DNA of 64,000 bases from the NCBI GenBank assembly GCA_012840085.1, contig DUMB01000094.1, positions 1-64,000 of the forward strand, in the 5' to 3' direction. The translations under genes and the position numbers were made by a program. This document shows positions 1 to 4,323 of the stretch, in pieces (position 1 is the stretch's first letter; every line of letters starts with the position of its first letter). Under the pieces are notes generated by a model. That model saw only the letters and a program-made list of their open reading frames with translations, did no database searches and was not told the origin of the DNA. This stretch comes from Clostridiaceae bacterium (GTDB lineage Bacteria; Bacillota; Clostridia; Acetivibrionales; DUMB01).

Positions 1-3000
1 CATGTTACAGGTTTCAATCCACGCACCCGTGCAGGGTGCGACGTTTGAGGTAAGATGGAAAAACTCGGGCTTGAGGTTTCAATCCACGCACCCGTGCAGG
101 GTGCGACAGCAAGAACAATACGATGATGGATTCTATCCGGGTTTCAATCCACGCACCCGTGCAGGGTGCGACTCGCCATTGGCGGAATATAATATAATTG
201 GTTATTGTTTCAATCCACGCACCCGTGCAGGGTGCGACATGTTATGAATGTGAGCAAAATCATCTATACGGGTTTCAATCCACGCACCCGTGCAGGGTGC
301 GACGTGAAACTGTTTGTAAGGTTTTCATTAGGAAACTTGTTTCAATCCACGCACCCGTGCAGGGTGCGACATTTGCTGCCGCTTGATGTGGTAGGGGGAA
401 TAATTGTTTCAATCCACGCACCCGTGCAGGGTGCGACCCCGGCAGCTTCGATGTTGAAATGGATTCCGCCGGTTTCAATCCACGCACCCGTGCAGGGTGC
501 GACAGTTTTTGCATGTTCACATTTTGCCATGTTACAGGTTTCAATCCACGCACCCGTGCAGGGTGCGACGTTTGAGGTAAGATGGAAAAACTCGGGCTTG
601 AGGTTTCAATCCACGCACCCGTGCAGGGTGCGACTTTCGTCTAGTATCGTGGCAAAATTCAAAAAGAATGTTTCAATCCACGCACCCGTGCAGGGTGCGA
701 CATTAACGCAAACACTTAAAGAAACTCAGGCAGAGGTTTCAATCCACGCACCCGTGCAGGGTGCGACAACCCATTTTTTAAAATCCTCATAATCTTCTTT
801 TGTTTCAATCCACGCACCCGTGCAGGGTGCGACAATTATTGCAAAGAAGCTTGGTAGAACGCTGGATGTTTCAATCCACGCACCCGTGCAGGGTGCGACA
901 GTACATGGTAACTGACCCTTTGACCGGCAAGACTGTTTCAATCCACGCACCCGTGCAGGGTGCGACTGGATTGGGGGAGTAAGGATGATTGATAAATTCA
1001 ACGGTTTCAATCCACGCACCCGTGCAGGGTGCGACAGGAGATTTATCAGATGTATATAAAATGACAGTGGTTTCAATCCACGCACCCGTGCAGGGTGCGA
1101 CGCAAATGACTAAAAAATATCAGCACATTTTAAAGGTTTCAATCCACGCACCCGTGCAGGGTGCGACTTCAAACTGCTCAGGATATTTTTGTGCAAGTAT
1201 TAGTTTCAATCCACGCACCCGTGCAGGGTGCGACTGTTATTTTGCATATACCCCCTTTTTTATGGGGAGTTTCAATCCACGCACCCGTGCAGGGTGCGAC
1301 TTCCGATACAGCACTAGCCATAATCAAGCAAAATTGTTTCAATCCACGCACCCGTGCAGGGTGCGACTCACTCTAAGCGGATATTAACAACGTTTATCGG
1401 AGTTTCAATCCACGCACCCGTGCAGGGTGCGACTATACAAGGGTGTTTGAGATTATACAGTCCAGAGGTTTCAATCCACGCACCCGTGCAGGGTGCGACT
1501 ATCTTGTGTCAAGCTGTCCGCCTTTTAACGTACAGTTTCAATCCACGCACCCGTGCAGGGTGCGACATTCAATACCTCTGGCAGATTCTCTGCCCTGCGC
1601 TAGTTTCAATCCACGCACCCGTGCAGGGTGCGACTTGATTTCACATTTTAAGGACAATGTGCACAACAAGTTTCAATCCACGCACCCGTGCAGGGTGCGA
1701 CAAAGAGAGAGATACAGAGGATAGAGAGAGCACTGGTTTCAATCCACGCACCCGTGCAGGGTGCGACATAGCAGGATTTCTCCTTTCTGTGGCGAATTAT
1801 GGTTTCAATCCACGCACCCGTGCAGGGTGCGACAAATATAATTTATACCTATCCGCTTTGCTATCGAGTTTCAATCCACGCACCCGTGCAGGGTGCGACT
1901 TACATAATATACTTGAGCATATTTTATCACAATGTTTCAATCCACGCACCCGTGCAGGGTGCGACATTTTTACATTACGGATGATGAGTTTGAAAAAATG
2001 TTTCAATCCACGCACCCGTGCAGGGTGCGACTTTATGGCTGATTCAATTATGCCTGTGTATGAAGTTTCAATCCACGCACCCGTGCAGGGTGCGACTATT
2101 ATATTTATCTAATTCTTCCTGAGTTATGTTCGTTTCAATCCACGCACCCGTGCAGGGTGCGACACTAACAAATTTCAGATTAGAGCAGCTTGAGAAGTTT
2201 CAATCCACGCACCCGTGCAGGGTGCGACTCTAAGTTCCGGATCAGCCGTCATGCGACCCATCAGTTTCAATCCACGCACCCGTGCAGGGTGCGACCTTAT
2301 CTTAGGTTATGCCGGAAAAACACTATTTGTTTCAATCCACGCACCCGTGCAGGGTGCGACTTGCCCCTGGTATTGATTGGCTGATGCGTCCAGAGTTTCA
2401 ATCCACGCACCCGTGCAGGGTGCGACTAATGTCAACATGTTTGCCAGAGATGTTGGCGAGTTTCAATCCACGCACCCGTGCAGGGTGCGACATTGTAGAT
2501 GGGGTACTTGCAATTGCGAATAGTAGGTTTCAATCCACGCACCCGTGCAGGGTGCGACGAGAATGTGGGAAAATTTTTGTATTAGGAGAAAAGGTTTCAA
2601 TCCACGCACCCGTGCAGGGTGCGACCAAGGGTCAGGAGGTAAACTATAAGCAAAAAATTGTTTCAATCCACGCACCCGTGCAGGGTGCGACAAGACTATC
2701 AGGCTTCATTAAAGTGCCTTTTTCAGTTTCAATCCACGCACCCGTGCAGGGTGCGACCTTGCTACGACACACCAAATATCGGCGCATTTATGTTTCAATC
2801 CACGCACCCGTGCAGGGTGCGACTCTATGATAACATTACCAACTGGAACAAATACCGTTTCAATCCACGCACCCGTGCAGGGTGCGACGTGTAATTAATC
2901 TATGTTGGAAGCATCATCACGGTTTCAATCCACGCACCCGTGCAGGGTGCGACTTATGTTTACAATTTTATTGGCCAGGTCCGTATAGGTTTCAATCCAC

Positions 3001-4150
3001 GCACCCGTGCAGGGTGCGACAGGCGAGGTTATTTTACTAAAACGAGAACAGGTAGTTTCAATCCACGCACCCGTGCAGGGTGCGACTTGCTTGGTGTCGT
3101 ATGTTGAGCTTCCAAAGTACAGTTTCAATCCACGCACCCGTGCAGGGTGCGACCCGCTTTCCTTAGCTGGTGCCTGGAGCATAAGCCTGTTTCAATCCAC
3201 GCACCCGTGCAGGGTGCGACTTGTTATTATGTAGCGCTTGACGATCACGTCGGTGTTTCAATCCACGCACCCGTGCAGGGTGCGACGTTCCGCTCGGAGC
3301 ATTATCCAGCGCCCATAGCCAGTTTCAATCCACGCACCCGTGCAGGGTGCGACCCACAATTTGAAATTTCAATTAATCCAAAATATTTGTTTCAATCCAC
3401 GCACCCGTGCAGGGTGCGACCCCGCATTGATGATTGAATATAACTTTATCAGTAGTTTCAATCCACGCACCCGTGCAGGGTGCGACGATGTTCGGACAGA
3501 TCCGGCCAATAGTCATAGATGTTTCAATCCACGCACCCGTGCAGGGTGCGACCCATATCATTCACCGCCTTTAATATCATCAAACAGTTTCAATCCACGC
3601 ACCCGTGCAGGGTGCGACCATCCGCAACTTCAACGATTACATACTTAATTTTGTTTCAATCCACGCACCCGTGCAGGGTGCGACCTGGCTGGTGAGTACA
3701 AGGGAAGTATGATTTTCATGTTTCAATCCACGCACCCGTGCAGGGTGCGACTCGTATTAAATTCCACTTATGGTGCAATGAAAGATGTTTCAATCCACGC
3801 ACCCGTGCAGGGTGCGACATCCGCAACTTCAACGATTACATACTTAATTTTAGTTTCAATCCACGCACCCGTGCAGGGTGCGACTGCCTATCTACATACA
3901 CACCATCTTTGTATATATGTTTCAATCCACGCACCCGTGCAGGGTGCGACATGCACTTTTTGTTTCTTGTTTCCACATACCCTTTGTTTCAATCCACGCA
4001 CCCGTGCAGGGTGCGACATGATGTTATTCTAATTGATATTGATGATGCTGAAGTTTCAATCCACGCACCCGTGCAGGGTGCGACTTCTTCAGGGGTAAGC
4101 TTCCTGTCTATGTCAAAAGTTTCAATCCACGCACCCGTGCAGGGTGCGAC
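1..4150 (-). CRISPR. Type I-C CRISPR array, 63 visible repeats, left end outside window
   Basis: A 32-bp repeat, identical in every copy I checked, recurs 63 times from 11-42 to 4119-4150, separated by spacers of mostly 33-35 bp (one is 37 bp, 967-1003). The repeat contains a 7-bp stem, CGCACCC/GGGTGCG. Read on the minus strand it ends in ATTGAAAC, the usual I-C crRNA handle, so transcription runs leftwards, in line with the cas operon. The leader side is at 4150, so the newest spacers are on the right. Positions 1-10 are the tail of a further spacer, so the array continues beyond the window. Spacer 43-75 recurs at 570-602, and spacers 3619-3652 and 3819-3852 overlap by 33 bases with a one-base shift. 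Short peptides translated across the repeats are not genes. Confidence 0.98.
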
Positions 4151-4323
4151 TGTTATGCCTAAAAAAAGCTTAAACACGTAGGTTTGCAGCGCCCTTTTGC
4201 GCGGACCTATTTATTTTGAAGAATTTAATTACGATATTTTAGGCGGAAATTGCTCGATAGGCCTTGAAAATACTCATTTCGCGGATGGCCTAGCAAATTA
4301 ATGTTCACTTTGGGTTCGCGCTG
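4151..4323 (-). promoter_or_regulatory. Leader of the type I-C array
   Basis: These 173 bp lie between the cas2 stop codon and the first repeat, where an I-C leader is expected. On the minus strand the stretch carries an inverted repeat (GCGC-AAAAGG-GCGC, around 4187-4203) and an A/T-rich segment next to the first repeat. It should hold the array promoter and the integration signals read by Cas1-Cas2. I could not pick a single convincing -35/-10 pair. Confidence 0.75.

What the first reader, a model, noticed from the sequence alone, without database searches (positions are those of the whole stretch)
3619..3852. Two I-C spacers from one protospacer, offset by a single base
Spacers 3619-3652 and 3819-3852 share 33 bases. 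The first has an extra C at its left end, the second an extra A at its right end. They are not a duplicated unit, because their ends and positions differ, so the same protospacer was probably captured twice with a one-base slip. In crRNA sense one begins TAAAATT and the other AAAATT, so at most one can have the canonical TTC PAM directly adjacent. This is a natural record of PAM slippage, perhaps by primed adaptation with Cas4 trimming.
Basis: partly seen in the sequence, partly recalled or inferred. Interest (0 to 1): 0.6.

Follow-up and report, generated by a model that had tools for sequence, protein, structure and literature searches.

The report
One phage site captured twice, one-base slip
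A bacterium's CRISPR memory holds two records of the same spot in one phage's DNA, one cut at the correct marker and an older one cut a single base too far; this is a known kind of copying error, caught here with its source phage and its order intact.

Summary
Confirmed. Window 3619-3652 (sp8 from the leader) and 3819-3852 (sp5) share 33 bases offset by one; the next-longest match between different spacers is 10 bases. The locus is an intact type I-C system with Cas4. The leader is at the right, so the slipped spacer is the older and the correct one the later capture.

Eleven of the 12 leader-most spacers map to one phage's replication module (within 5.6 kb); older spacers already targeted it, so conditions for primed capture existed, though the trigger is not proven. 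sp1 also looks like a +1 slip.

In 61 I-C arrays of the class (2,295 spacers), 27 spacer pairs re-capture one site with differing ends: 25 keep the PAM end and vary distally, 2 (this one included) move the PAM end. The repeat before sp8 ends in C although the phage base there is T, so here the last repeat base was not PAM-derived. Slipping is known; this is a new, unusually complete natural case.

The parts
3619..3652 (-). Spacer 8 from the leader (older, slipped): AAAATT...GGATG; protospacer PAM TCT, i.e. TTC plus one base
3819..3852 (-). Spacer 5 from the leader (newer, canonical): TAAAATT...GGAT; protospacer PAM TTC
3653..3684 (-). Repeat on the 5' (crRNA sense) side of spacer 8; its last base is C while the phage base at -1 is T
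3685..3786 (-). Spacers 7 (3685-3719) and 6 (3752-3786) between the pair; both map to the same phage (1 mismatch each)
3354..3586 (-). Older spacers 12, 11 and 9 (3354-3388, 3421-3454, 3553-3586) against the same phage module, all with TTC PAM; spacer 10 (3487-3520) has no source found
3885..4118 (-). Newest spacers 4, 3, 2, 1 against the same phage; spacer 1 (4085-4118) also looks like a +1 slip (TTC C before it in three exact contigs)
11..4150 (-). Type I-C CRISPR array, 63 identical 32-nt repeats in the window; continues on contig C59 (19 more repeats)
4151..4323 (-). Leader region between cas2 and the first repeat
   Evidence: array follows the cas1 end in the same orientation in L142 and L144
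4324..4623 (-). cas2
   Evidence: TIGR01573
4624..5655 (-). cas1, type I-C
   Evidence: TIGR03640 489 bits
5658..6347 (-). cas4
   Evidence: TIGR00372
6347..7240 (-). cas7 (csd2)
   Evidence: TIGR02589
7241..9076 (-). cas8c (csd1)
   Evidence: TIGR01863
9081..9836 (-). cas5c
   Evidence: TIGR01876
9772..12003 (-). cas3 (HD nuclease and helicase)
   Evidence: TIGR01587 and TIGR01596

Best explanation
The two spacers are two independent captures of one protospacer in the sliding-clamp-like gene of a phage. In the first capture (sp8) the Cas4-Cas1-Cas2 machinery took the prespacer one base past the correct cut, while the length ruler kept 34 nt, so both ends moved by one base and the target lies next to TCT. 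Two further spacers from the same phage were added, and then the same protospacer was captured again with its end exactly at TTC (sp5). Shown: same site, PAMs, equal lengths, array position, one phage carrying all the neighbouring targets. Inferred: array position equals time order; sp8 gave weak interference because of TCT; both captures were helped by earlier spacers against the same phage (primed or interference-driven adaptation).
For: Exact 33-nt site in four IMG/VR contigs with identical flanks TTC-T / G, so both full 34-nt spacers match perfectly. No other copy in the host genome besides the array, with up to 3 mismatches. Cas operon is intact type I-C with cas4. The leader abuts cas2, and two other genomes have the array on the same side and in the same orientation. 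Spacers 1-9, 11 and 12 map to one phage: contigs L020 and L033, from one metagenome, overlap by 111 nt with no mismatch and together hold all 11 protospacers; reversed and complemented control spacers gave no match at 7 mismatches or fewer in 160 tries. The 10 distinct sites span 5.6 kb of 18.2 kb, P about 2e-4 for random TTC sites. Re-capture needs no special hot spot: 13% chance among 11 draws from the 394 TTC sites of that region.
Against: The acquisition events were not observed. The sequenced contigs are close relatives, not proven to be the very phage captured (spacers 4, 6, 7, 11 and 12 differ by 1-2 bases). Array order can be scrambled by recombination, and this array does contain recombined duplicates further from the leader (sp54/55/61). 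No strand bias pointing to a single priming site was seen among the 11 protospacers.
Confidence: 0.87

Rival explanations
1. Array rearrangement: the repeat-spacer unit of sp5 was duplicated and then gained one base at one boundary and lost one at the other, giving sp8.
For: sp8's 34 bases occur word for word in the sp5 unit if the adjoining repeat base is counted, so sp8 needs no second visit to the phage. Unit duplications do occur in this array (sp54=sp62; sp55=C1; sp61=C2).
Against: It needs two compensating indels exactly at both boundaries with both repeats left perfect; the certain duplications in this array are exact copies; sp5 cannot come from sp8 because its first base T is absent there but present in the phage; in 27 near-duplicate pairs from I-C arrays end changes are 25 distal to 2 proximal, not the symmetry that boundary indels would give.
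Confidence: 0.06
2. Two different phages: one with TTC-TAAAATT (source of sp5), another with TTC directly before AAAATT (source of sp8), so no slip occurred.
For: The phage group is mosaic and varied; the true source genomes are not in hand.
Against: All four contigs with the site have the same flank TTC-T; the only further homologs of the clamp-like gene are under 52% identical at protein level; the base before AAAATT would have to differ while 33 bases and the base after stay identical.
Confidence: 0.04
3. Assembly artefact: the contig merges array variants of a population, so the two spacers come from different cells.
For: The genome is in 108 contigs, and the array is broken at exact duplicates.
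Against: The two units share only 34 bases between repeats and each has its own neighbours; even if true, the slip itself would stand and only the order in one array would fail.
Confidence: 0.03
4. Same double capture, but without priming: both are independent captures at a favoured site during separate infections.
For: No strand bias around a single priming site; a relative in the same family (G005) has a spacer overlapping sp11's site on the other strand, so the module is hit repeatedly.
Against: Eleven protospacers confined to 5.6 kb (P about 2e-4), and earlier spacers against the same module present when each later one was taken, are what primed or interference-driven capture predicts.
Confidence: 0.3

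Closest known systems
PAM slipping in type I-F adaptation, Pectobacterium (Staals et al. 2016, PMC5059440)
   Same: Spacers captured within 1-3 nt of a canonical PAM; slips past the PAM usually keep the right length, as sp8 does; length variants come mostly from the PAM-distal cut, as in the 25 pairs of the survey here.
   Different: Type I-F, which has no Cas4 (own knowledge), and laboratory plasmids; here a natural type I-C array with the source phage.
Overlapping I-C spacer pairs against element LME-1, Legionella (Rao et al. 2016, PMC5071653)
   Same: Natural I-C array with two spacers on overlapping sites; the older one has the poorer PAM or seed, the newer one is perfect. In the lab 20 of 22 new spacers had the canonical PAM.
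   Different: Explained there by escape mutations in the element; here the phage sequence is the same and the older spacer is shifted by one base.
Slipped spacers that drive primed adaptation (Jackson et al. 2019, not held; described in PMC10415147)
   Same: Target with PAM shifted by one base, poor interference expected, later capture of better spacers.
   Different: Shown there by experiment; here a record that fits the model, with re-capture of the very same protospacer.
Cas4-Cas1-Cas2 of Bacillus halodurans type I-C (Lee et al. 2019, PMC6519985)
   Same: Same adaptation genes; precise cutting just beside the PAM, which matches 25 of 27 natural pairs keeping the PAM end.
   Different: In vitro no strong cutting at non-PAM sites was seen; sp8 is an in vivo exception.

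Membership tests
[quoted passage not shown]
   All seven genes hit their I-C or general Cas models above cut-off
[quoted passage not shown]
   TTC directly adjacent for spacers 2, 3, 4, 5, 7, 9, 11, 12; TTC one base away for 1 and 8; TTT for 6 in its nearest source
Slipped spacer | Perfect match to a protospacer whose canonical PAM is displaced by 1-3 nt | tested here: met
   sp8: 0 mismatches, TTC displaced by one base in four contigs
Slipped spacer | Non-slipped capture at the same PAM is possible, so the PAM itself is usable | tested here: met
   sp5 uses the same TTC
Primed adaptation | Pre-existing spacer against the same element when the new spacer is taken | tested here: met
   Spacers 12, 11 and 9 are leader-distal to sp8 and target the same module, provided array order is time order
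Primed adaptation | Strand bias and direction relative to the priming site | tested here: inconclusive
   Six + and five - protospacers, no clear pattern
Primed adaptation | Acquisition depends on the priming spacer and on Cas3 and the effector complex | not testable with these tools
   Needs an acquisition assay
PAM-derived last repeat base (as in type I-E; suggested for I-C in PMC8482600) | Last repeat base before a spacer equals the protospacer's -1 base | tested here: not met
   Repeat before sp8 ends in C, phage -1 base is T; in 12 arrays with C-ending repeats the exceptions form one block (C x11 then T x9 in L274), as copying of the old repeat predicts

The most novel reading that the evidence does not exclude
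Natural I-C arrays are a readable fidelity record: when a site is captured twice, the PAM end is almost always identical and the distal end drifts (25 to 2), and the rare PAM-end slip, as here, is an inferior first memory that is later replaced by a correct capture of the same site, with the repeat's last base copied from the array and not from the PAM.
Probability: 0.5. Interest if true: 0.55.

Novelty: new member of a known kind. Interest (0 to 1): 0.45.

Why it matters
It is a natural, fully readable case of a slipped spacer next to its corrected version, with the source phage and the array order known, in a Cas4-bearing I-C system. It lets three questions be tested on sequence alone: how exact Cas4-dependent cutting at the PAM is in nature, whether slipped first captures are followed by correct ones, and whether the last base of I-C repeats comes from the PAM (here it does not).

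Tried and rejected
Phage and plasmid collections: no convincing source for this spacer; one plasmid of Thermocaproicibacter melissae matches spacer 2 at 97%. Exact scan for the C12/C14 spacer found nothing; a degenerate scan through its terminase-like motif found relatives with TTC next to it. Homologs of the clamp-like gene were checked for a TTC directly before sp8's start: none. Strand bias as proof of priming: inconclusive. Search of the one family relative held for the site: none. Looked for papers on same-site re-capture in natural arrays: none found with those terms. Rao et al. 2017 on I-C priming is not held.

Full report
The observation. The array occupies window 11-4150 with 63 identical 32-nt repeats. 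Beside it, on the minus strand, lie cas2, cas1, cas4, cas7, cas8c, cas5c and cas3, all intact and all matching the expected models, with type I-C models for cas1, cas7, cas8c and cas5c. The leader is the stretch 4151-4323 between cas2 and the first repeat; in Acetivibrio straminisolvens and Desulfosporosinus the array lies on the same side of cas1 and in the same orientation. So crRNA sense is the minus strand and new spacers enter at the right. They share 33 bases with an offset of one; no other non-identical pair shares more than 10.

The protospacer. An exact scan for the 33 bases found four virus contigs. In crRNA sense all four read CC-TTC-T-AAAATTAAGTATGTAATCGTTGAAGTTGCGGAT-G-AAGAA. Spacer 5 therefore sits directly beside TTC and spacer 8 beside TCT. 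Both 34-nt spacers match perfectly. The site lies in a gene for a 177-aa protein with a weak match (below the curated cut-off) to the DNA polymerase III beta clamp, next to DUF669, a weak family B polymerase match and a D5-like primase-helicase. The host genome holds no other copy.

Could there be two sources? A search for relatives of the clamp-like protein returned only the same four contigs; the two further homologs found among polymerase-bearing contigs are under 52% identical and lack the site. Three contigs are identical here and the fourth belongs to a distinct haplotype (98% in the clamp protein, about 88% in DNA over 6.5 kb), yet all keep TTC-T before and G after. No source with TTC directly before spacer 8 was found.

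The neighbours. Mapping all 80 spacers of the array to 87 loci of this phage group (1.2 Mb), spacers 1-9, 11 and 12 match with 0-2 mismatches and none of the others match at 7 or fewer; 160 reversed or complemented control spacers gave no match at 7 or fewer. The best contigs L020 and L033 come from one metagenome and overlap end to end by 111 bases without mismatch, so one phage probably carries all 11 protospacers. They lie in 5.6 kb of its 18.2 kb; the probability of such a tight range for 10 random TTC sites is 1.65e-4. PAMs: TTC for eight spacers, TCT for spacer 8, TCC for spacer 1 (TTC one base away in three exact contigs, so probably another +1 slip) and TTT for spacer 6 in a source with one mismatch. 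Re-capture of one TTC site among 11 draws has a probability of 13% in this region or 4.5% over the 18 kb, so it needs no special cause.

Mechanism. Equal lengths and a one-base shift at both ends say that the whole capture window moved, with the ruler intact, as described for slips past the PAM in type I-F (PMC5059440). The slipped spacer is the older. Because TCT is not the I-C PAM it probably interfered poorly, and the later exact capture of the same site is what the slipped-spacer model predicts (PMC10415147 describing Jackson et al. 2019). Spacers 12, 11 and 9 were already present, so primed or interference-driven capture was possible; that it happened is inference. No strand bias was seen.

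How common is this? Cas8c genes were found in 68 of 393 genomes of the class. I took stretches from 60 places, found arrays, and together with this genome compared spacers within 61 arrays, 2,295 spacers. Among pairs that cover the same site on the same strand but differ at an end, 25 keep the PAM end and differ distally by 1-3 nt, and 2 differ at the PAM end by one base: this pair, and one in L320 that also has a substitution. If end changes were boundary indels after duplication both ends should suffer alike (binomial P 2.8e-6; about 1e-3 if the array L323 with ten pairs is left out, computed by hand). The other end of this same array, on contig C59, holds one of the 25: C12 and C14, 35 and 36 nt, in a phage terminase-like motif; close relatives have TTC beside it and the extra A in place. 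So PAM-end slips are the rare class and this is the clean example.

The last repeat base. It has been suggested from PAM-repeat matches that the final C of some I-C repeats comes from the PAM (PMC8482600), as in type I-E. At spacer 8 the phage base is T but the repeat ends in C. In 12 arrays with C-ending repeats the only mixed one shows eleven C then nine T in blocks. Both speak for copying of the existing repeat; later homogenisation of repeats cannot be excluded.

Verdict. Slipping and overlapping spacer pairs are known, including in a type I-C array (PMC5071653), so this is a new member of a known kind, but an unusually complete one.

Noticed in passing
G000 contig C59 (L017), spacers at 770-804 and 904-939: A second twice-captured site in the same array: same TTC end, 35 against 36 nt at the distal end, one spacer between them; lies in a terminase-like motif (GVDTQDDRLE).
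   Followed up: yes
window 4085-4118 (spacer 1): The newest spacer matches three virus contigs exactly with TTC one base away (TTC-C), a probable second +1 slip.
   Followed up: yes
window 1-140 and 504-634, with C59 1-145: Spacers 54, 55 and 61 occur twice in the array as exact copies (62, C1, C2), a recombination that also breaks the assembly at the window's left edge.
   Followed up: partly
L265 (genome G005, same family), first spacer: A relative of another genus with the same repeat holds a spacer overlapping spacer 11's site on the opposite strand of the phage polymerase gene, also with TTC; two hosts hit the same spot.
   Followed up: partly
L323 array (genome G089): One array of 179 spacers holds ten pairs that re-capture the same site with the PAM end kept and the distal end changed, a rich natural set for measuring end fidelity.
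   Followed up: partly
L274 and L309 arrays: The last base of the repeat switches once along the array (C to T in L274, A to T in L309), recording a mutation in the leader-end repeat that all later repeats inherit.
   Followed up: partly
window 3752-3786 (spacer 6): The nearest source has TTT in place of TTC and one seed mismatch, which could be phage escape from this spacer.
   Followed up: no
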